This document shows positions 3,033 through 55,774 of a stretch of DNA of 64,000 nucleotides, piece after piece. Source of the stretch: Coemansia sp. RSA 487 (Eukaryota; Kickxellomycota; Kickxellomycetes; Kickxellales; Kickxellaceae); contig JANBRJ010000031.1 of the NCBI GenBank assembly GCA_027577595.1, positions 1 through 64,000 of the forward strand, written 5' to 3'. Made by a program: the position numbers and the translations under genes. The notes beneath the pieces were generated by a model that was not told where the DNA came from, ran no database searches, and was given only the letters and a program-made list of their open reading frames with translations. How positions within the stretch are numbered: the stretch's first letter is position 1; each line of letters opens with the position of its first letter.

Positions 3033-3458
3033 ATAACGTTCACGTACGCTCTGGTCTTGGCTGCATTTGAATACTTTTCAGAAAGTACATATTCTGTGCC
3101 TGCGGGTGGCAATTCAATGTCGGAGAATACAAATACCGAGGGAGACACCGTATGCTCGGGTGATGTTGAACTATATGACGAGTATTATAATGTATGTCCC
3201 AGCGAATCCACCAACCAACTTCCTGAAGTTGTTCTTAGTGAAGAAAAGTTTGGTTTTATCGACGAGAATATGATACCTGCCATGTGCAGCAAGTGTGTCA
3301 ACATTCAGGATAATGTAGCTACTATGCTTGCCTGTATTATCGTCGTGTGTGAAGACTGTAACGACAACAATATCGAGATGTACCAGGATCAGATTAACAA
3401 ACTCAATGGAGATAGAAAAAGCACGTTTACCAGAAACAAAATTAATTGGATCAGTTAA
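3033..3458 (+). pseudogene. Decayed paralogue of the 1961 expansin-like gene
   Basis: The reading frame from 3033 aligns end to end with the 1961 protein: TYALVLAAFEY against VYTLVLATLGL in the signal peptide, then CPSESTNQLPEVVL, AMCSKCVNIQDNVATML, VVCEDC and DQINKLNGD. Where the live gene has ATG this copy has ATA (3033-3035), and no in-frame ATG restores the signal peptide. The hydrophobic core is interrupted by charged residues (FEYFSE). The frame stops at WIS, so the final Val-Asp-Cys of the domain is missing. The long open frame shows the loss is recent. An upstream spliced start cannot be excluded. Confidence 0.7.
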
Positions 3459-4014
3459 CCGCAACCAAGGTCAAAATAGGCAATGGTATGGTAAGCAATC
3501 ATTATTTAGCCACTTTTTATTGAAATACTAAACAAAAATATCTCAACCTGTCAACGATTAACGAACTTGCCATGGCTTTTGTTGTTGTTTTGGATTTGGA
3601 ATCTTTCAAACGTGAGAGGGATAATATACGCAGGTCCCTACATTCTCGCAACTACTTTTTCCATTTTGTTTGGTTTTGTTTTGTTTTACTATCATCATTT
3701 TTATTTGCTCTCTTAAAAAGCGGTTCTAGTGTAAAGGCCAACAAAAGGAAACAAAAGTGAGCCAATAGTAATGAGGCATGTCTAAAGTATTTCCTTGTGT
3801 TAGAAAGTGACATGCAAGGGCTGCATTTTATAAAGAGGTTACCAACGTGCAAGGACTTGCCTGTCAATGGGATAGAAAAGGAAAAGCTGCATCCGTACCT
3901 AAACACAAAATAGTTCTAAATTTTCCGAATGAATCTAATGACATTTTATTCTTTTGCTACCAGTTTTCCAATATATCTTATTTTTATTCTGCTTATAACG
4001 TGTACTTTTAAAAA
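3459..4014. other. Spacer upstream of the 4015 expansin-like gene
   Basis: No gene seen. Contains a T-rich tract near 3650-3710 and TATAAAG at about 3829-3835, 180 nt upstream of the next ATG. Confidence 0.4.
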
Positions 4015-4641
4015 ATGAAATGCCCTTTGCTTGTTCTGTTGGTCGTTATCCTGTTAATATGCATAGTCGACGCATCCAATAGTTTGTCACCAAACAAAAG
4101 CAATATAGGCAATCTCCAGCTGGCAGGAAATAGAAGTGGCAAAACAAGACAAAGGCTTCGTCGCAGGAACTTCCAAGGCCCCAGCATCCAGCCGAATCTA
4201 AACAAGAACGTAAACCAAAACGAGTCAACCACAAGCACACAGCCCTCCTCGACATCTAGTGACATGTATTCAAGTTCCATCAGTGAAACATCTTCTGGTA
4301 ACTATGAAGGTTCGGATAGCGGTTCTGGCGAGATTTTTTCTGGCGACGGCACGTACTTCACGCCGGGACTTGGTTCGTGCGGTAAAACAAACGCTGAAGA
4401 TGAATTTATTGCCGCGATCAACGCACCGCAATATGGCACATACGCAAATCCAAACAATGCACCAGTATGCGGCAGATGTGCTTTGGTAAAGGGTGCTTTG
4501 GGTCGGGTCAAGGTCACTATCACAGACAAGTGTCCTCCTTGCAAGCACGGCGACCTTGACCTTTCGCCTGTTGCCTTTATGGAGATCGGAGACATGGATG
4601 ATGGTCGCATCCCAATTACTTGGTCATTCGTCGATTGCTGA
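4015..4641 (+). CDS. Secreted expansin-like protein with Ser/Thr-rich stalk
   Basis: 208 aa. Residues 1-20 are a signal peptide (MKCPLLVLLVVILLICIVDA). Residues 21-105 form a low-complexity stalk: an Arg-rich patch (RQRLRRRN) followed by Asn/Ser/Thr-rich sequence likely to be O-glycosylated. Residues about 106-208 are a double-psi beta-barrel: GDGTYFTPGLGSCG, CGRCALVKG, ITDKCPPCKHGDLDLSP and terminal ITWSFVDC. The HGDLDLSPxAF block with its Asp is the hallmark of fungal expansin-like proteins. These are secreted, non-hydrolytic or weakly lytic wall-acting proteins. There is no C-terminal carbohydrate-binding module. The barrel is nearly the same as that of the 8814 gene, while the stalk is unrelated. 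Cell-wall remodelling is inferred from the family. Confidence 0.85.
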   Translation: MKCPLLVLLVVILLICIVDASNSLSPNKSNIGNLQLAGNRSGKTRQRLRRRNFQGPSIQPNLNKNVNQNESTTSTQPSSTSSDMYSSSISETSSGNYEGSDSGSGEIFSGDGTYFTPGLGSCGKTNAEDEFIAAINAPQYGTYANPNNAPVCGRCALVKGALGRVKVTITDKCPPCKHGDLDLSPVAFMEIGDMDDGRIPITWSFVDC

Positions 4642-5151: not shown

Positions 5152-5715
5152 ATGAAGTGCTTCTTATTTTTTTTGATTATATGCATGATAATACTGTGCA
5201 CGGTTGATGCAGGCACCTTTGCAAACAGCGCCGCAGAAGAGCGTGTCATGCAGATAAGGATGGGACGGCTGCGCCGTCGCCGCGACTGCAATAAGGTGAA
5301 TGTGCAGAATAATAACAATAATAACGAAATAGACCAGAATTACCCGAGCAGCCTGTCTGAGGAAAGTAGTTCTGCCAATGAACCTAGCAGTGAAAGCGGC
5401 GAGGAGTTTACTGGCACCCTTACCAACTACAATGTTGAAGAGAACGAGGGCGCTTGTGGCGGCATGAACACAAACGACGAGATGGTTGCTGCTTTGAATT
5501 CGGCTCAGTTCAAAGCTGATGATAACGGTTCGTCCGTGTACTGTGGTGTTTGCGCGACCATCATGGGCGATAAGGCCACAATTGTGGTCAAGATTGTCGA
5601 TGAGTGCCCAACTTGCCAGGATAATGATCTGGATCTTTCTCCTGCTGCCTTTGCCGCAGCAACCACTGCTGATGGCATGGCAAAGAACATTAAGTGGTAT
5701 TTTACGAAATGCTGA
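5152..5715 (+). CDS. Secreted expansin-like protein, divergent barrel
   Basis: 187 aa. The signal peptide (MKCFLFFLIICMIILCTVDA) resembles that of the 4015 protein, which supports tandem duplication. It is followed by a basic patch (GRLRRRRD), an Asn repeat, and a Ser/Glu-rich stalk. The barrel spans about residues 85-187: EGACGGMNTNDEMVAALNS, CGVCATIMG, IVDECPTCQDNDLDLSPAAF and terminal IKWYFTKC. The DLDLSPxAF block and its Asp are kept, but the preceding His-Gly is replaced (QDN). It is clearly more diverged than the 4015/8814 pair. Same orientation as its neighbours, with its own spacer of about 500 nt, so separate transcription is likely. Confidence 0.8.
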   Translation: MKCFLFFLIICMIILCTVDAGTFANSAAEERVMQIRMGRLRRRRDCNKVNVQNNNNNNEIDQNYPSSLSEESSSANEPSSESGEEFTGTLTNYNVEENEGACGGMNTNDEMVAALNSAQFKADDNGSSVYCGVCATIMGDKATIVVKIVDECPTCQDNDLDLSPAAFAAATTADGMAKNIKWYFTKC

Positions 5716-8813: not shown

Positions 8814-9710
8814 ATGAAGTTTAGCGTTGCTCTTTCGTTTATTGCTGCCGCTGCCTTGGCAGGCTCCGTTTCGGGATCTCTCATGAAGAGGGAGCAAGCA
8901 AATGTCGAATCGCTCAAGGGCGCAGCTGCTTGTCTTGCTGCCAAGCCCAGCCAACAACAGCAACTGACAACTGCTATTCCTAATGCTGGCGCGGCCGCGG
9001 TTGACGTTGTCACCGAAATTGTCACCGTAACTGCTGCTGGTTCCGAGAATGATGGTGGCGAGAACCAAGATGCTCCCGATGTCACTGGCGGCGAATCTGA
9101 TGGCACTTCTGCTGCCGAAGGTGCCATGCTTGAGGATATCACTGCCGAAGGTGCTATTCCCGTCGATTCTGCCGCAGCTGGTGACAACACCGGTGCTGCT
9201 GCTGACAGCACAGCACAGCAGGGCGAGTCCCCGGAAGCAGCTCCCCTCACCGGCGCTGCTTCTCCTTCTGCGGCGGCTACGGTCTCGTCATCGGCACCAA
9301 CTGGCGGCGCCACATCATCCCCACAAGCCGATACTCAAGCAAGCAGCAGCGCCAGCGGTAGTAGCGACGGTGAATCGTCATCGGGAGGCAATTCAGAGAC
9401 ATTCTCTGGCGACGGAACGTACTTTTCGCCAGGACTCGGGTCGTGTGGACAAACAAACACCGATGAAGACCTTATTGCCGCAATCAATGCGCCACAGTAC
9501 GGAGCAACAAGCGGAGACCCCAACTCGGCCTCTGTTTGCGGCAAGTGCGCGCTGGTCAAGGGCGCCAAGGGCCAGGTCAAGGTCACTATCACCGACAAGT
9601 GCCCGCCTTGCAAGCACGGCGACCTTGATCTCTCGCCAGCTGCTTTCAAGCAGATCGGCAACACTGATGATGGTCGCATCCCAATCACCTGGTCGTTTGT
9701 CGACTGCTGA
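8814..9710 (+). CDS. Secreted expansin-like protein with long Ala/Ser/Gly stalk
   Basis: 298 aa. The start at 8814 is chosen because it places a clean signal peptide first (MKFSVALSFIAAAALAGSVS); an in-frame upstream codon would add 20 residues in front of it. Residues about 22-195 are an Ala/Ser/Gly/Thr/acidic stalk without cysteines apart from one near residue 41, probably O-glycosylated. The C-terminal about 102 residues are a double-psi beta-barrel (GDGTYFSPGLGSCG, CGKCALVKG, TDKCPPCKHGDLDLSPAAF, ITWSFVDC). About four-fifths of barrel positions match the 4015 protein by eye. This gene sits 3-4 kb from the other copies, separated by the F-box gene. Wall-loosening is inferred from the family. 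Confidence 0.85.
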   Translation: MKFSVALSFIAAAALAGSVSGSLMKREQANVESLKGAAACLAAKPSQQQQLTTAIPNAGAAAVDVVTEIVTVTAAGSENDGGENQDAPDVTGGESDGTSAAEGAMLEDITAEGAIPVDSAAAGDNTGAAADSTAQQGESPEAAPLTGAASPSAAATVSSSAPTGGATSSPQADTQASSSASGSSDGESSSGGNSETFSGDGTYFSPGLGSCGQTNTDEDLIAAINAPQYGATSGDPNSASVCGKCALVKGAKGQVKVTITDKCPPCKHGDLDLSPAAFKQIGNTDDGRIPITWSFVDC

Positions 9711-21509: not shown

Positions 21510-22350
21510 TACAGTGGTGTGCCAATGTTTTTCTAATTTCAATATATGTATTGTCTCTTTTACCCATGGCATAACACCAGGCTATGATAAACGTGCAACG
21601 TTTGTAGATACAGCAAGTATGTGTTGTTGTCTTTTATTTTATGAAACATAACAAAGAACTAAAGAGAACAAATTAATATTTAATGGCAAACCCTTTCTTG
21701 CCAATGACCATCTTCATGTGCTTAGACATGCTTTCAGTTAGATTGTTGATATGCTTTAGTTCGATGCTATTCCAGAGTTTGCAAAAAGGTGTTTCCTTGC
21801 CATTGCTTGTCGAGTATCCTAGTAATTCCCTAGAAAATATGTGCTTCAAAATCCCCCACGCATTTTTAATCAGGTTGAGGTCAGATGAATTCGCTGGCCA
21901 TGTTTGTTTTTCAATGCCTTTCAACTGGTGATATTCACGGGAAGCGCTTGATGTGTGTATGTGTGCATTGCCTTCTACAAGTGTTGTGATTTTGTCCTTT
22001 GTCATAGACACCAGTTTAGACGTATATGCTCCTTCCTTGCTACCCTATAAACGATGCCTTCATCTTTCAGAATCATTCCAATGTACTGGCGACAGATATC
22101 GAGCTCTAAATCTCATATGATCTGTTTGTTTGCTATTCTCAGGTCCTTCTTCGCTGTATTCACAGTGTGCCGTCTTGTACGTTTGTTGATATTTGGTTTA
22201 CTGCCGCTCTTTGGCTTAGGCTTCATTGTCTCGTACTCATCGAAATGCTTGATCAAGGCTCGCACAGTCCGCATAAATGAGTCCAAATGCTCAGCTATTA
22301 CACGAGAAGGAAAACCTTGATCCCTCTTCTCAATGACTTTTTTCTAATAG
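21510..22350 (-). mobile_element. Decayed Tc1/mariner-family DNA transposon
   Basis: On the minus strand, 21673-22011 encodes the C-terminal part of a DDE transposase: VEGNAHIHTS, then WPANSSDLNLIKNAWGILK (compare the family's WPxxSPDLNPIENxWGxLK). Further 5' on that strand (about 22020-22320), broken frames give the HTH and N-terminal part (RRTVNTAKKDLR-like and ILKDEGIVYRV-like pieces). At 21510 the sequence TACAGTGGTGTGCCAATGTTTTTC looks like a TA target followed by the terminal repeat. The matching right terminus was not found. The DNA motif has lost its Asp (EGNA) and the last acidic residue reads Lys (IKN), so the element is dead. A relative lies at 55326. Confidence 0.7.
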
Positions 22351-29831: not shown

Positions 29832-31264
29832 TTAATGAAGGTGGACACGCCACTTGTCGTTCTCCTCACGGCCCGGACCAAAGCAAGTAACAGACTGGAC
29901 GTCCTCGGAGATAAGGATCTCGTGTGAATGAAGCGTCATTCCGCTGACATAGTGCCTGAGCACAATGGCGTCGTTTGCGCCCCAAGTTTGGCCATAGGCG
30001 CCCTCGCCCCAGCGCTCGACAACCCAGTGGTCGTTTTCGTCCGAAAAGCCTTCATCGCCATACGCAGTGACCTCGTTCTGGCCAGACTTGTCATGGAAGT
30101 TGTAGTGCGAGTGCAGATGCCTACCGGTTTCCAGATGGCGCAGACGGATTTGCGTACCGTAGGCAACAACGGACCCAGGGACGGGGACATCGTGGTTGGC
30201 CGGGAGCACTTGCCACCAGTCGTTCTGGTCGGGGTTCCAGCGGTACCCGTACACCAGCTGCTGGTTGGACCCCGTCTGCGTTCCGTGCGAGCGGTCGGTA
30301 TGCAGGAAGCGGCCAGTCATGTTGTGCTTGAGCGAGATGACGCTACCGATTTTCATGACAGTGTCGCCGTCATTATGGCGGAGCTGCGGGTACTGGCGCG
30401 GGGTTGGCGAGTTGTCAGAGCTGCGCGAGGGGTCAGCGTTGCGTACATCGTTTTGGTCAAAGCTGTATGCAGGGCGGCCAAACGGTGCAGGAGGAACAAA
30501 GCCTCCATCGTTCCCACCACCATAGTGCGGGGGACGCTGCTGCTGCTGCTGATACCCGCCATATCCAGAATCCTGGCTAGGCGAATACCCACCGCCTTGA
30601 TGCTGCTGCTGCTGCTGGCGGCGCTTCTCTTCCTCGTGACGACGCCTCTCGTCCTCTTCTCTGCGACGCTTCGCCTCCTCTTCTTCCTCTTCATCTTCCT
30701 TGTGCTCACGGTACTCGTGCACGCCATACGCAACGGCTCCAATGGTAGCGGCGCCCAGCGCAGCAATCCCAGCCTTCTTGCCCCAATCCTTGTACTTTTC
30801 GCTCTTCTCGTGCTGCTCAAGCTCCTCTTGCGAGTAGCCGCCGCCGGGAACATTGCCACCGTACTGGGAGCCCCCAACCATGTTGCCGCCAGGGCGAGGA
30901 GGACCACCAGCAGGTCCACCTTGTTGGTGGAACGACTGACCGTAGTGCGACGGTGAAGGACCGCTTTGGAAAGACCCTTGAGGCCCCGGGTACGGCTGCT
31001 GCTGGCCATAGGGACCTGGTCCACCGCCGTACTGCGATGGTGCATTCTCGTCCTTGCGACCAAAGAAGCTGCTATAGTATTTTCCATAAAGCATTTAATA
31101 TTTACATGTCCTTTAAAACAAGCACCAACACAAAATAAACACTAAAGAAATACTTGCCCAAGTCCGCGATCCTGGTCCTGGTTGCCCTGGTCTTCACGAC
31201 GCTGGTACCCGTCGCCTCCGCCGTAGCTATTGTTGTTGTTGTTGTTGTTATCGTAGTAGCTCAT
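29832..31264 (-). CDS. MIR-domain protein with Gly/Gln-rich N-terminus (paralogue A)
   Basis: Two exons (31264-31158 and 31071-29832), 448 aa. Exon 1 encodes MSYYDNNNN..., an Asn run and a Gln/Asp/Gly-rich start. The middle is Pro/Gly/Gln-rich. A Gly/Ala hydrophobic segment (AGIAALGAATIGAVAYGVHEY) follows, then a highly charged Glu/Arg helix and a Gln run. The C-terminal about 190 residues carry MIR-type repeats: VISLKHNMTGRFLHTDRSH, IRLRHLETGRHLHSHYNF, IVLRHYVSGMTLHSHE. MIR domains are beta-trefoils found in protein O-mannosyltransferases and IP3 receptors. Here there is no transferase, so a ligand- or sugar-binding role is inferred. The exons join in frame only through a GC-AG intron. Tandem with paralogue B. 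Confidence 0.75.
31072..31157 (-). other. GC-AG intron of MIR paralogue A (86 nt)
   Basis: On the minus strand the donor is CTTGG|GCAAGTAT and the acceptor ACTATAG|CAGC. Phase 2 joining gives ...DRGLG-SFFGRKDENAP. The only nearby GT (within GCAAGTATTT) gives the wrong phase with this acceptor. The first eight intron bases equal those of the taspase GC intron. Confidence 0.65.
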
Positions 31265-31945: not shown

Positions 31946-34192
31946 CTACTTGGACAAAGCAAGCCGCCATTTAGCGTTCTCAGAAGTACCATTTCCGGTG
32001 CACACAACTGACTGCACATGCTCGCGCAGCATCACATCATGCGAATGCAACACCATGCCGCTGACATAGTGTCTGAGCACAACCGTATCGGTGGACTTCC
32101 ACGTTTGGCCGTACGCGCCCTCGTTCCAGCGCTCGACGACCCAGTGGTCATATTCGTCGGAGAGCGTCTGGTCGCCAAACGCAGACACCTCGTTGTTGCC
32201 CATGCGGTCCTTGAATGTGTACTGCGAGTGCAAGTGTCTGCCGGTCTCGAGATGGCGCAACCGGATCTGCGTGCCATAGGCGACGATTGAGCCAGGGACA
32301 GGGATGTCGCGGTTGGCCGGAAGCACTTGCCACAGATCGTTTTCGTCGGCGTTGCTGCGGTGGCCGTACACAAGCTGCTGGTTGGACCCCGAGACCGTGC
32401 TGTGCGAGCGGTCCGAGTGCAGGAAGCGGCCAGTCATCGCGTGCTTGAGCGCAACGATGGTGCCGATCTTGATGACCGGATCGCTGGGGCCCTGACGCAG
32501 CTCTGGGTACGTCTGGGGCGTGCCCGAGTTCTCGGAGTTGCGAGTCGGGTCTGGGTGCCGCACATCGTTCGGGTTGTACGTGTATGGTGGCCGGCCAAAC
32601 GGCGCAGGCGGCGCAAACGTACCTTCGTTGCTATGGTGGCTGTGGTGGCTGCCCACACTGTCTGCGCGCTGCGGACGAGGTGCGTATGCCTGCGACGCGT
32701 ACGCTTGCTGGTGCTGCTGGTGCTGCTGGTGCTGCTGGTGCTGCTGGTGCTGCTGCTGTTGCTGCTGGTGCTGCTGCTGTTGCTGCTGGTGCTGCTGCTG
32801 TTGCTGGTATTGATACTGCTGCTGTTGGTATTGCATGTTTAGGGCCTCCTGTTGCCGACGCCTGTTCTCCTCCTCGCGTCTCCACCGCTCGTATTCCTCG
32901 CGTCGCCGCATCTCCTCCTCCTCGCGCCTGCGACGGGCCTCGGCTTCGCGCCTTTGGCGCTCGATTTCCTGGAGCTTGCCGCTTTTCTTTTCGTTATCGG
33001 GTGAGATATGGTGGTCGACGAGTTCATGCACGCCATAGGCCACTGCTCCGGCTGCCAAAGCGCCCAACGCAATCTTGCCAGCTTTTCCCATGCGGTCGGT
33101 CGACGTTGGCGGGTCCTCGGTTATGTACATTGGCTGGGTGCTCGCCTGGTTCGCGTCGTATGCAGACACTCCACCAAGGCTGGGCGCATAATTTGACTGT
33201 GCGTACCCGGCGTTCTGCTGCTGTACGTTTCCGCTCGTGTTGTAGGGCCCTGGAAGCACGCTGCTGACGATGCTGGCATTGTTGATCCCTCCTCCGGCTG
33301 CTGCATTGGCCGCCGTGTTGGCTGCTGTGTTGAGTGAGTTGTTGTAGCTGAACCCGCTGCTTTCCGACTGAATGTTGATCGTGTTTTGGCGACTGCCGCT
33401 GCTAACGTTGCCACCACCACCAGGCCCGTAGTATGTGCTGTTTACAGTTTCTTGCCGAGGTGCCTGCGATCCGGATTGTGGCCCGTAAAGGCTGGAATTG
33501 GAGGAATTGCCGGTTGTGTACGGCTGCTGACCCTGCTGGTTCTGCGGCTGTTGCTGTGGAGGCGACGGTGACTGCTGGTACTGTGCGCCAGGGGCAGGCA
33601 TGTTCATGTTGCTAGTTGGCGGCCCGCCGCCATATTGCTGTCGGTCGGGCTGCATAGGCTGCTGTGGCTGGCTGTACATGCTAGGGTTGCTCATAGAAAC
33701 CGGCGTATAGAGCTGCGACACTCCCGGGCCAGCAGCGACGCCAGGGCCATATCCAGCAGGCGACGGGTATGCACCTGGGACAAACTGCTGCTGTGAGGGT
33801 CGTGGTCTTGCCGCAGGGCCAGCCGCCACTGAAGCACCACTTGCCGGCGGATACGGCTGGGGCCCGCTTCCCACCGAATTATACGTTGCTGGCGCTTGCG
33901 CATACACAGGACCAGGTGTATTGTTACCACGTGTGGTGTCGGTGGGCGCAGATTCTTCTGCTGCACACTGCGCACAGCTGCCTGAGTCAGACCCAAGCGG
34001 CGGTGTCCTGTTAATGTTGCTGTGCACTTCGTCGTGCTCCCAGTTACTGCCCTCCTGGTGGTTGGCTCCGCGGTGTCCTCCGCCGCCAGTAAGCGCTCCA
34101 CTCATTGCTGGCCCCGTAGTGTGTTGACGCTCATTGTATTGCGATGGCCGCGGCCCAAATGATTCTGCAATCGATACAGAGTCGTCGTTCAT
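31946..34192 (-). CDS. MIR-domain protein with polyQ/H tract (paralogue B)
   Basis: 748 aa, intronless as read. Residues 1-360 are Pro/Gln/Gly/Ser-rich and probably disordered. A Gly/Ala hydrophobic stretch (GKIALGALAAGAVAYGVHELVDHH) follows near 370, then a charged Arg/Glu helix (RRREEEEMRRREEYERWRRE), a long Gln/His repeat, and a C-terminal MIR trefoil of about 200 residues: VALKHAMTGRFLHSDRSH, IRLRHLETGRHLHSQYTF, VVLRHYVSGMVLHSHD. Domain order matches paralogue A, so the two are tandem duplicates whose low-complexity parts have expanded separately. The hydrophobic stretch may insert into a membrane and the charged helix may form a coiled coil. Role unknown. Confidence 0.75.
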   Translation of the reverse strand: MNDDSVSIAESFGPRPSQYNERQHTTGPAMSGALTGGGGHRGANHQEGSNWEHDEVHSNINRTPPLGSDSGSCAQCAAEESAPTDTTRGNNTPGPVYAQAPATYNSVGSGPQPYPPASGASVAAGPAARPRPSQQQFVPGAYPSPAGYGPGVAAGPGVSQLYTPVSMSNPSMYSQPQQPMQPDRQQYGGGPPTSNMNMPAPGAQYQQSPSPPQQQPQNQQGQQPYTTGNSSNSSLYGPQSGSQAPRQETVNSTYYGPGGGGNVSSGSRQNTINIQSESSGFSYNNSLNTAANTAANAAAGGGINNASIVSSVLPGPYNTSGNVQQQNAGYAQSNYAPSLGGVSAYDANQASTQPMYITEDPPTSTDRMGKAGKIALGALAAGAVAYGVHELVDHHISPDNEKKSGKLQEIERQRREAEARRRREEEEMRRREEYERWRREEENRRRQQEALNMQYQQQQYQYQQQQQHQQQQQQHQQQQQQHQQHQQHQQHQQHQQAYASQAYAPRPQRADSVGSHHSHHSNEGTFAPPAPFGRPPYTYNPNDVRHPDPTRNSENSGTPQTYPELRQGPSDPVIKIGTIVALKHAMTGRFLHSDRSHSTVSGSNQQLVYGHRSNADENDLWQVLPANRDIPVPGSIVAYGTQIRLRHLETGRHLHSQYTFKDRMGNNEVSAFGDQTLSDEYDHWVVERWNEGAYGQTWKSTDTVVLRHYVSGMVLHSHDVMLREHVQSVVCTGNGTSENAKWRLALSK
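32697..32832. repeat. CTG/GTG-type trinucleotide tract (polyQ/H in paralogue B)
   Basis: A run of CTG, TTG and GTG triplets that on the minus strand encodes Gln and His in HQQ and QQQQQQH repeats. It also creates a long spurious Ala/Gly ORF on the plus strand. Confidence 0.9.
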
Positions 34193-38745: not shown

Positions 38746-39057
38746 ATGCACATCTACATCTGGGTGGGTGCATGCTGCATTGCAACTGGTATTTGCAACC
38801 ATGTTGTGATTAGATATATGTATGCTGATCCGGCTATGTTGATTCGGTATATGGTGGATCCAAAAACGGGTGTGAGAATAGTGGGACAAGCTCTCATTAA
38901 AACAAAGGAACCAATTCTTGGCAATCCGTATGGTAGAAAGCGTTCATACTCCAATCGCGCGGATCCTGCAGATGCCAAGCCCAAATATTTCATCATACAT
39001 CTAGCGCATGCATTAGAAGCTGTATGGTCAAAAATAGAAAACAATCCCCAAAAATAG
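38746..39057 (+). CDS. Small membrane protein of unknown function (103 aa)
   Basis: The first ATG in the frame is at 38746; the longer frame begins with TTG. Residues 3-25 (IYIWVGACCIATGICNHVVIRYM) form one hydrophobic helix, followed by a soluble part rich in Pro, Lys and Asp: DPKTGVRIVGQALIKTKEP, ILGNPYGRKRSYSNRADPAD and an amphipathic end. Composition and absence of low complexity suggest a real protein, possibly a small mitochondrial or ER membrane subunit. It starts only 45 nt after the RIB7 stop codon, on the same strand. Its promoter would lie inside RIB7, or the two are read from one transcript. I do not recognise the family. Confidence 0.45.
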   Translation: MHIYIWVGACCIATGICNHVVIRYMYADPAMLIRYMVDPKTGVRIVGQALIKTKEPILGNPYGRKRSYSNRADPADAKPKYFIIHLAHALEAVWSKIENNPQK

Positions 39058-39722
39058 TGTTTTCCAACAAATAAGCTTTACTCTTTTTGCCTTGAACTTT
39101 ATCCTATTAAATTAAAAAGGGGAGCAATGGTCGAACGGGTGTCAACATGCGGAGTGTGCTGTTTGACTGCTTTTGTTTAAGAATGCAAGGATCCAATTGG
39201 GTCTTTGTATCCACTGTGGCCGCATTTGACAAGGTTGTCTTGTTTGTTTCCTCTTGTTTCTTTGTCAGCTTTTTCATATACTTTTTGGCGTTAGAGTGGT
39301 ACATCCCTGCCACAAATGAGGAGACAAAAGAAAAATTTACAACGTCATTCGCTCCATATGCCTTCAAACTTTGCAGCACACGATGCTAGAAGAGTTCAAG
39401 ACGCAAGTCATCTAGCTGTCAGAGAAACACTTGATTTTTTACGTATAAAAGAAACAGATCTTCATGTCTCCGGTTTTGTTTTTCTTTCTTCCATATCAGC
39501 TTTTTTCTTTTCTATCCAAGACAAGTAGATTTTTCTTTACCTCGACATCAGTTTTTGTATTTGCAATAACGGCTCATTTGTACAATCGTTTTCACACGTC
39601 TGAAACCATCATAAGGAGTAGCAAACACCAAACCTCGCTAATCTCATCACTACTACTACAACCACGTTTTCAAGACAAGCTCTATCACCTATTCAGTTCT
39701 GTATCATCACCAATCCATAAAT
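39058..39722. other. Spacer with overlapping unsupported ORFs
   Basis: An 80-codon plus ORF at 39147 and an overlapping minus ORF (ATG near 39304) both look plausible by composition, hydrophobic on plus and Lys-rich on minus, but neither has motifs. TATAAAA at 39444-39450 serves the 39723 gene. Confidence 0.35.
39444..39450 (+). promoter_or_regulatory. TATA box for secreted gene 1
   Basis: TATAAAA about 273 nt upstream of the ATG at 39723. Confidence 0.35.
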
Positions 39723-40238
39723 ATGAAGGTTGTTTTTGCTAGCATCCTTACTTTTACTCTCGCTGCATTCGCCGTTTCTGCCGCGCCTATTGGCGATTCT
39801 GGCGCCCCCGGCGAATCTGCAGCCATAGCAAGCGGTGAATTTCCACCATCAGCACCCTCTGGTGCCCTCCCAAGCGGCATAGAGATCCCACCCCCTCCCG
39901 TAGAGCCCGGTGAGCTATCCGATCTTGAAGATCCAAGCGATATTTCGGGATCTGGAGACGATATGGACTGTGGTGATTTTGGAAGCGACTCAGACGACTT
40001 TGAAGACGCGTCCGATGGCTCTGATTCCGACGATGGCGACGACCAAAGTGCTGATCTCGGTGCAGATGGATCGCCGGGTGGTATCGCTCGTCGCGATGGG
40101 TCTGGAAGGCGCCCCGGAAGCCATAGGAAGCAAAAGGGTAGAGCCTGCAGCCCAGAGATGAGCATGACGCCGCTTGGTGAAGCTTCTGGGTCTGATGATC
40201 TTGTTGCTCCGGAAATCCCCACTAGCGAGGCAGCTTAA
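39723..40238 (+). CDS. Secreted acidic/basic two-Cys protein 1 (171 aa)
   Basis: I do not recognise this family. Residues 1-20 are a signal peptide (MKVVFASILTFTLAAFAVSA, then APIGDSGAPG). The mature protein has four zones. First is a Pro/Gly/Ser zone with GIEIPPPP. Next is an acidic Asp/Ser zone (DMDCGDFGSDSDDFEDASD) with one Cys. A basic zone follows (RRDGSGRRPGSHRKQKGRAC) with the second Cys. Last is a short tail, DDLVAPEIPTSEAA. The same order recurs at 41586 and 45832. The paired Cys could form a disulfide bridging the oppositely charged halves, and dibasic sites (ARRD, GRRP) could be Kex2 cleavage points; both are inference. No transmembrane helix or GPI site seen. Confidence 0.7.
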   Translation: MKVVFASILTFTLAAFAVSAAPIGDSGAPGESAAIASGEFPPSAPSGALPSGIEIPPPPVEPGELSDLEDPSDISGSGDDMDCGDFGSDSDDFEDASDGSDSDDGDDQSADLGADGSPGGIARRDGSGRRPGSHRKQKGRACSPEMSMTPLGEASGSDDLVAPEIPTSEAA

Positions 40239-41585
40239 TTTAGGTTTCTTGTGTGTGTGGCTACTTTTTTCTATAGCAAGTTTATGTTATATAGACAAAG
40301 TTGGCTCTTTATATTTATTAACACTTTTATATATTCATAGGCACAAACGGTACTTTAGAAAAGATATTGCTTAATTTGAACAAGAGTTAATCAATAACGA
40401 TTATGTCACATTTGCTATCCAAAATTAGGTCAATTTTGTGTTGGCTGTAGACAAAAAGCAGTCAACATTTGTGACTCTATGCGGCGATTAAATATATGTT
40501 CTGACTCGCGTATGTTGATTCGGCATTACAAATCATCCTTGTGCGGCAGCCCAGGATCAATTTACAATGACAATAGGATATAGCATATCCGAACAGTATG
40601 AACAGTAAAGCTAATTTGAAGCACAGCCTCCAATCCTTGGCGTCTTGTTTTGTACAAAGTGTATCTCTTTCGCACATTTACTACAGTTGCGTGGATTCCG
40701 AAAATGCCAAGACCATTTCTTTTACATCACCCATGCACATGCGTACTGGACATGAATGGACAGAAAGGAGCTTCTTTCTGTGTATGAATAGACTCAACAC
40801 CGAAAACAGAATTGTAGAACGACTCAACCCCCACAGGAATAGACCATTTTTTCCGCTGCCAAGAAATTATATGCACTGGCCAAAGTGTGCAAAGCCAAAC
40901 GATCGTCAATATCTTAAATATATATTGTGTGTTGTAAGACTGCTTTTACTTAACGTAAAAGCGTAATTGGACATTTGCGTCCAGTATGGTGGCCTCCTTT
41001 TTAAGGTGAAGTCGTGTGCCATTTTTGAGTGGAAAGGGCTTATTCATTCGCCTTTTTTTGACAGCATCCGCATCTGCTCTGTGTTTGAGGCAGTACAACT
41101 GAGACATTTGGAAACACAATAGAAAGAATTAAAGCTTCCATCTACAAATGGACAGGTGGTATGATCATAACGCTTCCTTTTCTATTTGTATAGAAAGCAC
41201 ACACTTTCGGAATAAAGTACGAAAATTACTTTCTCTCTGCCATCAGAATGCTCAATTTTAGAATATATAAGGAAACATGAGCATCTATTTCTGAGCAAAG
41301 CGATTCCCACATCGGGTTTTTCTCTTCACCACATAAACGGACGCATTTCCTCACTCGCTGCAAACAGAACTGGCAGACTTTCTCTTGGTCACCCATCCGA
41401 CACCATCGTTACAACAAAACCCCATTTTCACCATTGTTAATAAATATAGCTGGATCTATATTTATTTCACATTATATATAAAAGCTGCGAGTATCGCACT
41501 TTCACAACTCCCACAACCAAACCAACATCTGAAGGAATTCACTCTGCTTCCTCATTCAACTTTGTACCAACCTTAGTCCATCAAG
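40239..41585. other. 1.3-kb spacer in the secreted-protein cluster
   Basis: No supported gene; a 122-codon ORF at 40598 has no features. It ends with TATATAAAAG at 41475-41484 and a C/A-rich leader for the next gene. Confidence 0.4.
41475..41484 (+). promoter_or_regulatory. TATA box for secreted gene 2
   Basis: TATATAAAAG, 102 nt upstream of the ATG at 41586. Confidence 0.55.
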
Positions 41586-41966
41586 ATGAAATTGTTTTAC
41601 GCTGGTATCCTTACCTTTACCCTTGCGGCATTTACCATTTCTGCTGCACCTGCTGGCGAGGTGAGCAGTAAACTCTCACATAAGGAATCTAGAGGCGTGG
41701 CAAACAGTGAGCATCCGTATGGTTTCCCGTCCGCAGGTGGTTTCTCGGATTGTAGTGATTCTGGAAGCGACTGGGATAACTACGATGCTAGCGACGAGCA
41801 CAGCATGTTCCACCACGAATGGTCTGATGGAGAATCCCATAGTGGAGAGCATAGGAGACGCAGGGGCCGTGGCTGCCATCCACATATGAGCGGGTTCTCT
41901 CATGATGAACATTTTGGCGACGACGGTCTTGTTCCTTCTGAAATTCTTACCGACAGCGCGGCTTAA
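41586..41966 (+). CDS. Secreted acidic/basic two-Cys protein 2 (126 aa)
   Basis: Paralogue of the 39723 protein. The signal peptide is nearly the same (MKLFYAGILTFTLAAFTISA, then APAGE). The acidic zone is FSDCSDSGSDWDNYDASDE with one Cys; the basic zone is GEHRRRRGRGCHPHMSG with the second Cys; the tail (DDGLVPSEILTDSAA) aligns with DDLVAPEIPTSEAA of copy 1. Spacing between the two Cys is shorter than in copy 1, and His replaces many residues in the mature part (EHSMFHHEW). Only the signal peptide, the two Cys contexts and the tail are conserved, so the mature region is evolving fast. Confidence 0.7.
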   Translation: MKLFYAGILTFTLAAFTISAAPAGEVSSKLSHKESRGVANSEHPYGFPSAGGFSDCSDSGSDWDNYDASDEHSMFHHEWSDGESHSGEHRRRRGRGCHPHMSGFSHDEHFGDDGLVPSEILTDSAA

Positions 41967-42848
41967 TACGTTTTTAAATCGTATGTCTCTTTTTATGCTT
42001 ATGTCGCATTTGATGGCATATTTAGTATTTCTATTTCTATTCACTCCACATGTAAACATTCTACTTGCTTGGAAACAATAAATGACAATTGAAATACTGA
42101 AACTACAATATAAAAGTGAATTCACTTTGTGCTGATTATCCTTTCTTTTTATGCACACCATGCTGAAACCAAACAACATTGCTTTATCAAGTGGAAGGCC
42201 TTTTTCGTTTCATGGCATCATTTAAAAACGTGTTTAACAGGTTATCAATATGCGGATATTGAAAGGAAAGTTCTGTTGGTCCATCAAAACATTCACGTAA
42301 TATGCAAATCAATGGCACATTCTCAAAAAATGCAAAACAAATGACAGGTACAAGGGTGAAGGGAATAGCATTCTTGAGCTGTTTTTTGGTGTAAAGTAAA
42401 TGAATAGCCAGTGCAGTGCAGGCCAGGCTTCAAAGATCGTTTGCACATTTTTTTGTCCATGCGCGAAGAAACATTCCAATCGTATGATCCTTTTGTATTA
42501 GAATGAATAAGGAAACAAGATCCGCACGATAATATCAGCCAAGAACTAATGTTTATTTTTCCTATTGGATACGGTAAAGTAATGGCACTGAGCGCTAAAG
42601 GTATTTATGTATCAAAAGTAACTTTATTTAATATATAACACCATAAATGCGTATAAAAACAGAGCGATTAATTGTAAAGTTGAAGATTTAGACTAGTAAT
42701 TCCAACCCTGGGCTATTCAATCAATGCCGGTAAATTCTAAATGTTTAGCTTACCAAAGTAAAAATCCTGTTGGGTCATGTATAGAACAAAGGCAATACAA
42801 TGGCAAATGCTGATTTTTCCAATAGCAGGTTCAAATTCTGTATTACTT
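41967..42848. other. Spacer in the secreted-protein cluster
   Basis: AT-rich; no supported gene. Confidence 0.4.
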
Positions 42849-43118
42849 TTAGGACTTGAAGGATTTTATCACCGTCTTTAGTTTGGACTTGAGCCTGATT
42901 ACAAACGGAATAATTCTTGTTTTTTTTTCAACTACATCGGGATATTGTATATATTTTGCATCACGTTTGTACGTATTCTTGGCATCTTTTACATTCTTAT
43001 CCAAAATTTCCTTAAATTCGAACCATGAAAGTGCATAGTCCTTACATCCTGTCTTTTTCCCTTTGGGGAACCCCTCGTACGTGAGCCTGTAAGCCATTCC
43101 TGGTACTCTGCTGCTCAT
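42849..43118 (-). CDS. Small orphan protein, LP/FPKG family member (89 aa)
   Basis: Not recognised. It starts MSSRVPGMAYRLTYEGFPKG, which lines up with MSGEVSEHILLSFEYQNLPKG of the 10586 protein: MS..V, a strand with alternating aromatic residues, then a Pro-Lys-Gly turn. A Trp-containing helix (SWFEFKEILDKNVKDAKNTY) follows, matching the W...AK..Y segment of the 53957 and 55814 proteins. The C-terminus is longer and Lys-rich (RLKSKLKTVIKSFKS) instead of ending YxIxP, which may be a later extension. A TATAAAT lies 110 nt upstream on its strand. It is antisense-oriented within the secreted-protein cluster and lacks a signal peptide. Confidence 0.55.
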   Translation of the reverse strand: MSSRVPGMAYRLTYEGFPKGKKTGCKDYALSWFEFKEILDKNVKDAKNTYKRDAKYIQYPDVVEKKTRIIPFVIRLKSKLKTVIKSFKS

Positions 43119-43227
43119 CGTAATAACTGAGAAAGCGAGAATGTTACTTGCTAGTTATGTATTAATAATATTGAAAAATGGATAGAGATGAAATTGCGAG
43201 CAATGGGCTAGTGGGCCATCCTTCAAA

Positions 43228-43234
43228 ATTTATA
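43228..43234 (-). promoter_or_regulatory. TATA box of the 42849 small gene
   Basis: Minus-strand TATAAAT, 110 nt upstream of the ATG at 43118. Confidence 0.45.
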
Positions 43235-44175
43235 TTCTACACAGAGAAAAAAGACACAGCGGTCACCAATAGACATATTCGTGCAGTCGCTCAATTAAAT
43301 AGCAGGCATCAAAGTCTTAAGCAAACATTAGCAAGACTTTTCCGTCGATGCTTCCTTTGAACCGCGTCCTAGATTCCGCTATGGTACTTCTGCTGACAGG
43401 AAAGTACACGGTGAAAATAATTTATAAAGGGGGTTTTCAAAGAAGCAACCCTAAAGGACTTCAAACGAACCCTTATTGTCCTTCTGAGAAGGGACAGCCA
43501 TTTACGCTTGGCATCACTGCCACCATTCGCTTCTCCAAATTGTTCGTGGCCTGTCTGTCAGTGCAAGTTATTTTAATAGCCATATGTAAGGTGCATTTAC
43601 ATGTCTATTCGCTGTATTCCACATTCTTGAGCTACAGAAAGTTGTTGTTGCTTGTTTCTTATTAAAGCATCATTTAAATGGTGCTGTAAATCAAATGGGC
43701 TGATTTAGCGATATGTAGCTCTGCTAATTGGCTTTTTGCTCACAAAATGGCGGCGGCCTCCCCCTTCTAGCTACTAGAGTCGCTCACAATCTATTTAGCT
43801 TGCAAGGAACAGCTATGTCTTTCTGATGTAAATATAAGAGCTACATCCTAGAACACAAAGAAAATGATTACGAAATTATGATTCAAATACATGCAGGGGG
43901 AAATGCGAGCAAAGCGCTCTTTTTATCTTTGCAGCGTGCTATATCCATATCAAGAGTTCAAAATATCACTACGCATCTGCTTTCCCAGGACTCAATTTTT
44001 AACACATATACGGAAACACAGCCTTTCACTCAACAGTACATATATCTTTGTACTCTTCAAACAGAATTAACAGAATCACTTTGTAACTGCATATCCAATC
44101 CGACATTACATTTGTAAAAGCAGCTCACACGTAATGATTGTTGTATTTCGGGGTCTGTTTGTCATTAGAATTGGG

Positions 44176-44183
44176 TATAAATA
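44176..44183 (+). promoter_or_regulatory. TATA box for secreted gene 3
   Basis: TATAAATA, 105 nt upstream of the ATG at 44288. Confidence 0.55.
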
Positions 44184-44287
44184 ACAGCGAGAGAAGCACA
44201 TTGGCATTTTTATAGCTTTAACTACAAGTACGACACTCATTTCTTTCTTTCTTCCATTACTCGATTACTTATTTACTGTAGCTTACT

Positions 44288-44815
44288 ATGATGAGATTTT
44301 TGTTTGCTAACATTATTCTCTTCACCTCTGCGACATCCGCTGTTTTAGCCGCTCCTGTTGGCGAATATAGCGACTCTCCCAGTCCCGCATATATAGCAAG
44401 CAACGGGTACTCAGATTCGTTCGGAGACTATGCAACTGCATCACCAGTCCCTTCTGAGATGTCGCCTCCAAGCGAAAAGTATTCGGCACCTTTTGTATAT
44501 TCTGCGGTTCCAGTGCCAACGCCACCAGAGACGCCGCTGCCAAGCGACGAGTACTCGGCACCATTGCCAAGCAATATTGGGCTCTCAGACCTTCCAACAG
44601 AGTCCAAAGGACAACCAGATATCGCTTATTCAAGTTGCTCGCCGGATACGGGAGATTACTTGAAATGCTATGACTTTGAAAGCCAGCCTGAAAGCAGCTA
44701 CTCTGCCATTGATGAATCTACAGACAACGGCAGCATGGGATACAACGACTATGGCAACGACTACGTAGAACCTTCCAATGCAGATGGTACAATCAATTCC
44801 AGTGGTGCGTATTAA
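44288..44815 (+). CDS. Secreted Ser/Pro/Tyr-rich protein 3, divergent cluster member (175 aa)
   Basis: Signal peptide MMRFLFANIILFTSATSAVLA, then APVGEYSDSPSP, matching the AP(I/A/V)G(D/E) junction of copies 1 and 2. The mature part is rich in Ser, Pro and Tyr, with short repeats (PSEKYSAPF, PSDEYSAPL). Two Cys occur close together in an acidic setting (SSCSPDTGDYLKCYDFESQ), but the basic Arg/His zone of the other copies is absent and the end is GTINSSGAY. It is therefore a diverged or incomplete relative. Position, orientation, signal junction and Cys count tie it to the cluster; function unknown. Confidence 0.6.
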   Translation: MMRFLFANIILFTSATSAVLAAPVGEYSDSPSPAYIASNGYSDSFGDYATASPVPSEMSPPSEKYSAPFVYSAVPVPTPPETPLPSDEYSAPLPSNIGLSDLPTESKGQPDIAYSSCSPDTGDYLKCYDFESQPESSYSAIDESTDNGSMGYNDYGNDYVEPSNADGTINSSGAY

Positions 44816-45831
44816 ACACAGTTTTACGCGGAAGCTTTATTTATAGCAAGTTTATGTCATATTGATGTAATTTTGGCTTTCTATTTCTTTTGCGACTCAA
44901 CTTCAACATACAATCATCTCATTTAATAGTGTCAAGCGAAAAAGTAACTTAATTTTTTCTTTCACAAAGATAGAGAGGGAATATGAAAGGAATCCGCACT
45001 CATCCCGGGTCTTAGCGGAAGTGCTTTTCTTAGCAATATCCTCTGCTCGAGTAAACAAATGTGCTTAAACATGTGGAAGGCTGTACATTCATTGTTGGCA
45101 TACATGAACTCGCACCAACATTCTAAAGCAAAATTTAGTCATTATCTTTATACGGGTTTGGGGGGAGGTGCAGTCCGTTTCAAAAAAGGATTCATACAAC
45201 ATGCAACTCAAGACACCTTCGCAACCAGACAATGCACATGGCGAGTGCGATGATGAAATTAGGTGGGGGAAAAGTAATCGCACGAGCGTCGCATTGCAGG
45301 CTTTGTTTATATTTTCCAAACATGGGAGACACTTACCAATCGCAGCGTGTGCATGCTCAAGCCAAAAAAGCATAGCATGGTGATCAGCGGAGACTGTGAG
45401 CAACTGAGACCGAGTGTTTTTTCTTGGACCATCGCGTGGCATCATGCATTAAGATTGTACCAATCACTTTTTCATACACAGACACACCCAGTGTTTTGGA
45501 GGGTAAGAGATCATTTTGCAAGCGATTGACGGGATCTTACAAGCTAGAGCAGAAAAAAAAACCTCAGCAGGTATAAAACGAAGCACAGGTCCTTTGGGTA
45601 TTCACGAATGAGGCTCTTTAGGCAAGCTACTTCGTTCCTCGTTAGACTCTTTCCTCGCTTTACCTCTTTCCTCATTTTCTTTACGCCCCACCATTTCTTG
45701 GAACATATAGCCGGTTCTATATTTCCATTAATCTCGTTCAAAAATTTCGTTACCCACATCCACATACGTCTGTTTTTAGCAACACCTCTTCCTTTGCTTC
45801 AACGCGCCTATTTCCCACTTCACTCGTAAAA
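44816..45831. other. Spacer in the secreted-protein cluster
   Basis: No supported gene. TATAAAA at 45572-45578 is the best promoter candidate for the 45832 gene. Confidence 0.4.
45572..45578 (+). promoter_or_regulatory. TATA box candidate for secreted gene 4
   Basis: TATAAAA, about 254 nt upstream of the ATG at 45832. Confidence 0.35.
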
Positions 45832-46554
45832 ATGAAGCTTCTTTCGACAGCCCTTGCATCCCTTGGTCTTGCCATGGTTGCCATGTCGGCGCCGATTCGC
45901 AGCCATAGAGAATACCAGGCTTCTGATGCTCTGGACAGCACAGATGCTCAGCCAAGCGGCGCTTACGAGCACGGCGGTCACCACTCAGGCATCGAGATTC
46001 CCGAGCACTCGGGTGGCCATGATTACTCGGTTGGCTTCCCGCCCTGGGGAGGCCACCATTCTGGGCACTCGCATTCCTGGGAGGACGACTGGGGCTGTGA
46101 CGACTCTGACGACGAATCCGACAGCGACTCTGACGACGAAGACGACGGCGACGAGGGCGATCACGGGCTGGACAACAGTCTCCTCGAAGCCAGCGACTTC
46201 TTTGACCCCGAAGAGTCCGTGGAGGGCAACGGCGAGCACTACTCCAGCAAGGCCCCGCGCAGCAAAAAGGGCGGCAAGAGGCACCGTGGCAGCCATGGGC
46301 ACCGCAGAAGACACCGCTGCCACAGCGGGTTGAGCGGCTCCCACGAGCACCACGAGCACAGGTCGTCCGACGATGGCTACAGCGTTGACGCAACCTTTGT
46401 TGTTCCGTCGCTCCCCACAGGCATTCCGCTCCCTTCTGATGATGCCACCAGCGCGCCGGCCGTCCCTACTGTGCTGCCGTTCCCGCTGTCAGCTGACCAG
46501 CCAGTCTACTCTACGTACGACGCAAGCCAGATTGCCAGCCTGTTTGGTCTCTAA
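45832..46554 (+). CDS. Secreted His-rich acidic/basic two-Cys protein 4 (240 aa)
   Basis: Largest cluster member and the GC-richest. Signal peptide MKLLSTALASLGLAMVAMS, then APIRSHREY. It shares SGIEIPEHS with copy 1 (SGIEIPPPP). The acidic zone is long (DDWGCDDSDDESDSDSDDED) with one Cys. The basic zone (KKGGKRHRGSHGHRRRHRCH) carries the second Cys, followed by SGLSGSHEHHEHR. His clusters (GGHHSGIE, GGHHSGHSHSWEDD, GSHEHHEHR) flank the charged zones and could bind zinc or copper; that is inference from composition. The C-terminal 55 residues are Pro/Val-rich and unique to this copy. It lies 264 nt upstream of the crotonase-like gene, on the same strand. Confidence 0.7.
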   Translation: MKLLSTALASLGLAMVAMSAPIRSHREYQASDALDSTDAQPSGAYEHGGHHSGIEIPEHSGGHDYSVGFPPWGGHHSGHSHSWEDDWGCDDSDDESDSDSDDEDDGDEGDHGLDNSLLEASDFFDPEESVEGNGEHYSSKAPRSKKGGKRHRGSHGHRRRHRCHSGLSGSHEHHEHRSSDDGYSVDATFVVPSLPTGIPLPSDDATSAPAVPTVLPFPLSADQPVYSTYDASQIASLFGL

Positions 46555-55325: not shown

Positions 55326-55774
55326 CAGTGATTAGCCAATGTTTTTCTGTTTAACCTTTTTCTAAATTTTATTCCAGAGTTTGTAAAGGAGTGTTTTCTT
55401 GTCATTGCGTTTCGGGTATCTTGTTAATTCCCTGGAAAATTTGCGCTTCAAAATTCCCTACAAATTTCCAATCGGGCTGAGATCGAGAGAATTTACCAGC
55501 CACGTTGATTTTTTACTACCTTGCAACTGACGATATTCTTCGGAAGTATTTGATGTGTGTATGAGCGTTGACTTCTACAAGTGTTTCAAGGTTACTGTTT
55601 TCAATTGAAAGGAACAGTTGAGGCATATATGATTTTTCCTTGCTACCCTAGAAACAATGCCTTCGTCTTTCAGAATCTTTCCAACGTACTGGCGACAAAT
55701 AATAGTAATAAATATTACACAATAAAACATTTGCTCCACATTGTCTAAAAGGGAGAAACATAAGCTCATCACTG
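55326..55774 (-). mobile_element. Internally deleted Tc1/mariner derivative (MITE-like, about 449 bp)
   Basis: It is flanked by TA on both sides (55324-55325 and 55775-55776). The left end CAGTGATTAGCCAATGTTTT matches the left end of the 21512 element (CAGTGGTGTGCCAATGTTTT), and the right end GCTCATCACTG is a short imperfect inverse of the left. Inside is a transposase remnant on the minus strand whose WLVNSLDLSPIGNL block corresponds to WPANSSDLNLIKNAWG of the other copy, with a stop where Trp belongs. Both the segment next to the left end and the N-terminal coding half are missing. Non-autonomous and old. Confidence 0.65.

What the first reader, a model, noticed from the sequence alone, without database searches (positions are those of the whole stretch)
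39723..46554. Cluster of four secreted proteins with an acid-Cys / base-Cys architecture
Seen: four co-oriented genes (39723, 41586, 44288, 45832), each with a signal peptide ending ...A-AP(I/A/V)(G/R). In copies 1, 2 and 4 an Asp/Ser tract holding one Cys (MDCGDFGSD, SDCSDSGSD, WGCDDSDDE) is followed by an Arg/His/Lys tract holding a second Cys (KGRACSP, GRGCHPH, RHRCHSG). Copies 1 and 2 share a tail (DDLVAPEIPTSEAA / DDGLVPSEILTDSAA); copies 1 and 4 share SGIEIP. Copy 3 keeps the signal junction and two Cys but lacks the basic zone. I know no named family with this order. Inference: the oppositely charged halves may pair intramolecularly around a disulfide, or basic sites may be Kex2-processed to release peptides.
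Basis: partly seen in the sequence, partly recalled or inferred. Interest (0 to 1): 0.75.

Follow-up and report, generated by a model that had tools for sequence, protein, structure and literature searches.

The report
Tandem family of acidic secreted proteins
A fungal-type chromosome carries three, probably four, duplicated genes for unstructured, very acidic secreted proteins; three of them keep one cysteine on each side of a likely processing-protease site, which could make two-part molecules, but no function has been shown.

Summary
Copies 1-3 are tandem paralogues. Copies 1 and 2 align beyond shuffles (0 of 1000), and flanking DNA was duplicated with them. Copies 1 and 3 share signal-peptide DNA and a 3' block. 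Copy 4's protein resemblance is no better than local composition allows, but it shares an upstream element with copy 2, holding the window's only two ATATAG-N(4-12)-CTATAT inverted repeats. Pfam, NCBIfam and PDB gave no credible relative; fungal databases could not be searched.

"Oppositely charged halves" is not supported: halves of copies 1, 2 and 4 sum to -19/-7, -7/-5 and -30/+1. What recurs is dibasic (kexin-type) sites between the two Cys in copies 1, 2 and 4; copy 3 has no dibasic site and its Cys are ten residues apart. The shared AP(I/A/V) junction fits the Erv29p/Surf4 ER-export tripeptide, so it is weak evidence of kinship.

Most likely: disordered acidic extracellular proteins exported via Erv29, with kexin nicking copies 1, 2 and 4 into disulfide-tethered chains. 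Processing, disulfides and function are inferred. Interest is modest.

The parts
39723..40238 (+). copy 1 (c1), 171 aa secreted acidic protein
   Evidence: no Pfam or NCBIfam match
41586..41966 (+). copy 2 (c2), 126 aa
   Evidence: homologous to c1
44288..44815 (+). copy 3 (c3), 175 aa, no dibasic site, Cys 117/127
   Evidence: homologous to c1 at signal peptide and 3' flank
45832..46554 (+). copy 4 (c4), 240 aa, His- and Asp-rich
   Evidence: kinship to the others uncertain at protein level
39783..39791 (+). c1 inferred mature N-terminal tripeptide API
   Evidence: sequence; cleavage site inferred; compared with the Erv29p/Surf4 motif of PMC6097701
41646..41654 (+). c2 inferred tripeptide APA
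   Evidence: as above; APA is the Pry1p tripeptide tested in yeast
44351..44359 (+). c3 inferred tripeptide APV
   Evidence: as above; APV is the Pry2p tripeptide tested in yeast
45889..45897 (+). c4 inferred tripeptide API (cleavage one residue later, giving PIR, is not excluded)
   Evidence: as above
39918..40067 (+). c1 Asp/Ser tract with Cys83
40089..40148 (+). c1 basic tract, RR123-124 (IARR-D) to Cys142
40149..40235 (+). c1 acidic tail shared with c2
   Evidence: alignment
41745..41801 (+). c2 Asp/Ser tract with Cys56
41850..41876 (+). c2 basic tract HRRRRGRGC with Cys97
41877..41963 (+). c2 acidic tail shared with c1
44636..44668 (+). c3 Cys117 to Cys127 (ten residues apart)
46081..46161 (+). 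c4 Asp/Ser tract with Cys89, partly a 24-bp tandem repeat (46101-46152)
46264..46320 (+). c4 basic tract KKGGKR to RRRHRC with Cys163
41429..41463 (+). upstream element of c2 with inverted repeat ATATAG-N6-CTATAT
   Evidence: blastn E 0.004
45689..45724 (+). the same element upstream of c4
40272..40292 (+). core of the 3' block of c1 (TATAGCAAGTTTATGTYATAT)
44842..44862 (+). the same 3' block core of c3
38801..40336 (+). one copy of the c1/c2 duplicated unit (upstream flank plus c1)
   Evidence: five collinear blastn matches
40479..42061 (+). the other copy of the unit (diverged upstream flank plus c2)
   Evidence: five collinear blastn matches

Best explanation
A small tandem gene family (copies 1-3; copy 4 probably an older or converged member) encodes secreted, mostly disordered, strongly acidic proteins. 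Proposed path: the signal peptide is removed, leaving A-P-(I/A/V), a tripeptide of the kind that Erv29p/Surf4 binds to export acidic or aggregation-prone cargo quickly. In copies 1, 2 and 4 the two Cys form an intramolecular disulfide, and a Golgi kexin cuts at the dibasic site between them. The result is an acidic Asp/Ser chain (one Cys) tethered to a shorter chain (one Cys) that carries what is left of the basic tract and an acidic tail. Copy 3 has no basic tract or kexin site and holds its two Cys ten residues apart, so it stays one chain. The likely site of action is the wall or extracellular matrix, through the Asp/Ser tract, which looks like a Ca2+-binding polyanion. Shown: genes, duplication of copies 1-3, Cys and dibasic positions. 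Inferred: cleavage, disulfide, Erv29 use, Ca2+ binding, site of action.
For: Duplication. Constraint: over three ungapped c1/c2 blocks, chosen from the alignment, synonymous change exceeds nonsynonymous (rounded 29 of 52 against 50 of 179 sites, Fisher p 0.0002, from counts). Two Cys in 4 of 4 copies; KR/RR between them in 3 of 4, and every KR/RR of those three lies there; the fourth has neither split Cys nor dibasic site. The c1 site IARR fits the stated kexin preference for Arg at P1, Lys or Arg at P2 and an aliphatic P4 (PMC8528282 passages). APA and APV are the tripeptides of the acidic yeast proteins Pry1p and Pry2p, whose ER forms increase in erv29-deletion cells; acidic DSPP made in yeast needed Erv29p and was apparently cut by Kex2 (PMC6097701 section 8). 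Predicted disorder. No family.
Against: Exact dibasic positions are not conserved: c1 has RKQKGRAC where c2 has RRRRGRGC, and c1's RR sites lie in a segment absent from c2. In the basic-Cys plus tail block alone the synonymous excess is not significant (p 0.08). Copy 4's protein kinship is not above local composition and tblastn with it finds no other copy. c1/c3 beyond the signal peptide is 58 of 1000 against block shuffles. The low-pLDDT model rests on four sequences. No expression or protein data exist here.
Confidence: 0.4

Rival explanations
1. Kexin pro-domain type: the acidic N-terminal part is a disordered pro-domain that is cut off, and the C-terminal Cys-bearing segment is the active secreted peptide, perhaps paired as dimers through its single Cys.
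For: Disorder ahead of a KR/RR site is a criterion given for Kex2-processed pro-domain effectors (PMC8528282 passages); in c1/c2 the C-terminal block aligns well.
Against: The cut lies in the second half of the protein, outside the first half searched for that class. The C chain is not cationic (c1 -1 or -2, c2 -5, c4 -3 or -7), against an acid-shielded cationic antimicrobial peptide. The acid part also keeps its Cys in c1 and c2.
Confidence: 0.2
2. Unprocessed acidic wall or matrix polyelectrolytes: the Asp/Ser and His tracts bind Ca2+ or other metal ions or matrix, and the basic patch anchors to an anionic polymer; no cleavage matters.
For: Strong net acidity of the four mature parts (-26, -12, -21, -29); predicted disorder of c1; dibasic positions not exactly conserved.
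Against: His content is not conserved (1, 11, 0, 21), so a His-metal role is not a family trait; dibasic sites recur between the Cys in three copies.
Confidence: 0.25
3. No common function: copies 1-3 are drifting duplicates whose low-complexity tracts grow by slippage, and copy 4 is an unrelated acidic secreted gene of similar composition.
For: The c4 Asp tract contains a 24-bp tandem repeat; c4 resemblance is explained by local composition; copy 3 lacks the architecture; GC at third positions is 0.71 in c4 against 0.44-0.46 in c1-c3.
Against: Synonymous excess over the three c1/c2 blocks together; shared upstream element of c2 and c4; all four ORFs are intact.
Confidence: 0.15

Closest known systems
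KEX2-processed repeat proteins (KEPs)
   Same: Secreted proteins with KR/RR sites
   Different: No repeated peptide between sites; copy 3 has no site; the published pipeline asks for at least four fragments and at least three repeats (PMC6339444 passages)
Kex2-processed pro-domain (K2PP) effectors
   Same: Disordered stretch ahead of a KR/RR site
   Different: Cut would fall late in the protein and between two Cys; no folded domain predicted after it
Dentin sialophosphoprotein and yeast Pry1p/Pry2p as Erv29p/Surf4 cargo
   Same: Acidic secreted proteins with a hydrophobic-Pro-hydrophobic N-terminal tripeptide; DSPP made in yeast is apparently also cut by Kex2
   Different: Resemblance in export signal and charge only; no sequence homology shown
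Orphan tandem arrays of small secreted proteins in fungi (recalled as a general kind)
   Same: Tandem duplication, divergence, no Pfam family
   Different: Acid-Cys/basic-Cys order with kexin-type sites between the Cys

Membership tests
KEX2-processed repeat proteins (KEP) | signal peptide | tested here: met
   hydropathy and AXA-like scan, (not SignalP)
KEX2-processed repeat proteins (KEP) | cutting at KR/RR gives at least four fragments, with at least three repeats of a motif | tested here: not met
   judged from site positions and tandem repeats (none in the c1-c3 ORFs; in c4 only the Asp tract and a 19-bp stretch of 9-bp units); criterion from PMC6339444 passages; the published pipeline itself was not run
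Kex2-processed pro-domain effectors (K2PP) | disordered pro-domain in the first half followed by KR, RR or LxxR | tested here: inconclusive
   KR/RR begin at residues 123, 129 of 171; 90-92 of 126; 149, 158, 159 of 240; none in c3, so not in the first half; LxxR was not scanned
Kex2-processed pro-domain effectors (K2PP) | folded mature domain after the cut | tested here: inconclusive
   AlphaFold2 on c1 shows no fold, four sequences only
Erv29p/Surf4 cargo with ER-ESCAPE tripeptide | hydrophobic-Pro-hydrophobic first three mature residues | tested here: met
   API, APA, APV, API with cleavage sites inferred; motif from PMC6097701
Erv29p/Surf4 cargo with ER-ESCAPE tripeptide | export depends on Erv29p | not testable with these tools
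   needs a deletion strain
Disulfide-tethered two-chain kexin products (a recalled kind, from no call) | one Cys on each side of a kexin-type site | tested here: met
   met in c1, c2, c4; not met in c3
Disulfide-tethered two-chain kexin products (a recalled kind, from no call) | actual cleavage and disulfide | not testable with these tools
   needs mass spectrometry

The most novel reading that the evidence does not exclude
A distinct, lineage-specific family, copy 4 included, of kexin-nicked, disulfide-tethered two-chain secreted proteins made only of disordered acidic and basic segments and held together by one Cys on each side of the cut, with one paralogue (copy 3) that has lost cut site and split Cys together. 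(Lower odds than the best explanation because it also needs copy 4 to be a relative and the family to be absent elsewhere, which was not searchable.)
Probability: 0.22. Interest if true: 0.6.

Novelty: new member of a known kind. Interest (0 to 1): 0.32.

Why it matters
If processing and disulfide are real, this would be a simple two-chain secreted protein without a folded domain, and the cluster shows how such an arrangement can arise or be lost by tandem duplication. If not, it is an ordinary orphan secreted-protein cluster.

Tried and rejected
Whole-genome search: no genome is held for this window. Related loci: the four-sequence alignment had no stretch conserved enough. Single proteins c1 and c2 in viral contigs and c4 in genome contigs gave 43, 2 and 222 pattern matches but no relative by tblastn at E 1e-3; c3 was not scanned. 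These collections are viral or prokaryotic, so the negatives say little about fungi. The PDB profile search gave one weak match (FAF1, E 0.37), taken as acidic composition. Weak Pfam matches of c4 (Nop14 E 0.78, CDC45 E 4.3, both below cut-off) were taken the same way. A PDB search with the serine hydroxymethyltransferase, meant to place the organism, did not name a lineage and is not used.

Rejected: acid-shielded cationic antimicrobial peptide (C chain not cationic); KEP (no repeats); His-metal binding as the family trait (His 1, 11, 0, 21). A second structure job was not run, as it would again have had few sequences.

Results against kinship: with the strict scoring used, 5 of 6 pairs of 320-bp upstream stretches did not stand out from Markov resamples (c1-c2 122 of 300 among them, although blastn finds c1-c2 similarity next to the start codon); c2-c4 did (1 of 300). 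Of 6 downstream pairs, c1-c3 (0 of 300) and c2-c3 (2 of 300) did. In one search one control segment for c1 overlaps c1's own upstream stretch (score 118); the c1 row of that upstream test is not used.

Papers: PMC6339444 and PMC8528282 seen as passages; PMC6097701 as abstract, passages and section 8; all others as search listings. No title or abstract in those listings described such a family, but most listings were capped (15 of 261, 8 of 56, 10 of 37, 10 of 56 and 10 of 50 papers), the library is open-access only and none was a search by sequence, so absence from print is not claimed.
Full report
Setting. No genome is held for this window. Its genes (kinesin, SYF2, dynamitin, GH38 mannosidase, serine hydroxymethyltransferase, a RibD_C-domain protein, DPBB-domain secreted proteins) fit a fungus; that is an inference, and I could not name the lineage.

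Observation. All four ORFs exist at the stated coordinates. Each begins with a hydrophobic segment and an A-P-(I/A/V) junction. Each protein has two Cys. In copies 1, 2 and 4 the first Cys lies in an acidic and the second in a basic context (-5/+3, -3/+5, -8/+4 within 7 residues); random placement of two Cys equals this in 0.0603, 0.0103 and 0.0178 of ordered pairs. Copies 1 and 2 are related, so these are not independent. Copy 3 has -3/-3.

Kinship. Window self-comparison found c1/c2 homology around the start codon (39635-39796 with 41494-41659, 68%, E 1.6e-12) and at the C-terminus and 3' flank (40122-40336 with 41850-42061, E 3e-5), and c1/c3 homology at the signal peptide (39723-39833 with 44291-44401, E 1.2e-5); it listed no match between c4 and another copy. 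By tblastn, c1 and c2 find each other (E 1e-6 and 1e-9), c1 and c3 find each other weakly (E 0.03 and 0.015), and c4 finds only itself and one chance antisense match. Mature similarity was reached, in full and block shuffles of 1000 each, by 0 and 0 for c1/c2; 0 and 58 for c1/c3; 5 and 432 for c1/c4; 124 and 151 for c2/c3; 12 and 124 for c2/c4; 55 and 104 for c3/c4. So at protein level only c1/c2 is secure beyond the signal peptide.

Noncoding evidence. c1 and c3 share a 54-bp 3' stretch (0 of 300 Markov resamples; 0 of 162 control segments from either side). c2 and c3 share a weaker one (2 of 300; 0 of 162 from either side). c2 and c4 share an upstream stretch (1 of 300; 0 of 162 controls from c2 and 1 of 162 from c4; blastn E 0.004) containing ATATAG-N6-CTATAT, which with a spacer of 4-12 occurs only at these two places in the window. 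The patterns were written from the sites themselves, so their chance expectations (0.04, 0.00, 0.00) are circular and only show that no third site exists. Three further collinear matches (E 4e-6, 1e-5, 2e-4) show that the flank upstream of c1 was duplicated with it; in 39 control segments the best E was 0.011. A match downstream of c2 and c3 (42171-42360 with 45053-45257, 58%, E 0.003) is weak.

Selection. Over three ungapped c1/c2 blocks, chosen from the alignment, synonymous change exceeds nonsynonymous (rounded 29 of 52 against 50 of 179 sites, p 0.0002). The signal peptide alone gives p 0.005, the basic-Cys plus tail block alone p 0.08, and the c1/c3 signal peptide p 0.04; the short acid-Cys block was not tested alone. 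The mature part is therefore at most moderately constrained.

Architecture. What recurs is a short basic tract ending at the second Cys, with the KR/RR sites of copies 1, 2 and 4 lying between the two Cys (starting at residues 123, 129; 90, 91, 92; 149, 158, 159). Copy 3 has no dibasic site and its Cys are ten residues apart. A cut at the sites examined would leave one Cys in each chain and a C chain of net -1 to -7. Exact dibasic positions differ between copies 1 and 2.

Structure. AlphaFold2 for copy 1 with the four-row alignment gave mean pLDDT 52, pTM 0.16 and only the signal helix. With four sequences this is weak, but it agrees with the composition.

Junction. PMC6097701 (abstract, passages and section 8) reports that Erv29p/Surf4 binds the first three mature residues, strongly when hydrophobic-Pro-hydrophobic. 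In yeast, ER forms of the acidic Pry1p (APA) and Pry2p (APV), both of pI 3.4, increase when Erv29p is missing, and DSPP made in yeast needs Erv29p and is apparently cut by Kex2. Copies 1-4 have API, APA, APV and API at the inferred site (for copy 4 a cut one residue later is not excluded). The secreted ORF at 1961 has APL, while the three DPBB proteins at 4015, 5152 and 8814 do not show the motif at the site I infer by eye. I read the junction as an export signal under constraint, so it is weak evidence of family membership.

Known families. For the four proteins, Pfam gave no match for c1-c3 and two below cut-off for c4; NCBIfam, a prokaryote-centred library, gave none; the PDB gave one match at E 0.37. 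KEP criteria are not met as judged from site positions; of the K2PP criteria the KR/RR part is not met in the first half and LxxR was not scanned. A TATAWAW lies within 350 bp upstream of 4 of 4 cluster genes against 5 of 17 other genes looked at, not corrected for AT content.

Verdict. A real, fairly ordinary tandem family of orphan acidic secreted proteins, with one unusual and testable trait, the kexin-type site between two Cys. Mechanism beyond the anatomy is inference.

Noticed in passing
window 1961-2425 and about 3042-3465: A secreted ORF without Pfam match (by eye like the DPBB proteins nearby) and a similar stretch downstream that looks decayed by eye (blastn 2138-2572 with 3189-3610, 64%).
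   Followed up: partly
window 4015-4641, 5152-5715, 8814-9710: Three secreted DPBB-domain (barwin/expansin-like) proteins; by eye those at 4015 and 5152 have Arg-rich, kexin-like tracts soon after the signal peptide.
   Followed up: no
window 21768-22098 and 55370-55701: Two stretches 76% identical over 335 columns, 33.6 kb apart and outside the ORFs of 150 aa or more chosen; possibly a dispersed repeat.
   Followed up: no
window 29832-31094 and 31946-34192, minus strand: Neighbouring pair of MIR-domain proteins, DNA 72% identical over 666 columns.
   Followed up: no
window 38746-39057 (+) and 42849-43118 (-): Two short ORFs of 103 and 89 aa beside and inside the cluster. The first had no NCBIfam match (not scanned with Pfam), and DNA in and after it is partly duplicated between copies 1 and 2. 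The second had no Pfam match and one NCBIfam match far below cut-off.
   Followed up: partly
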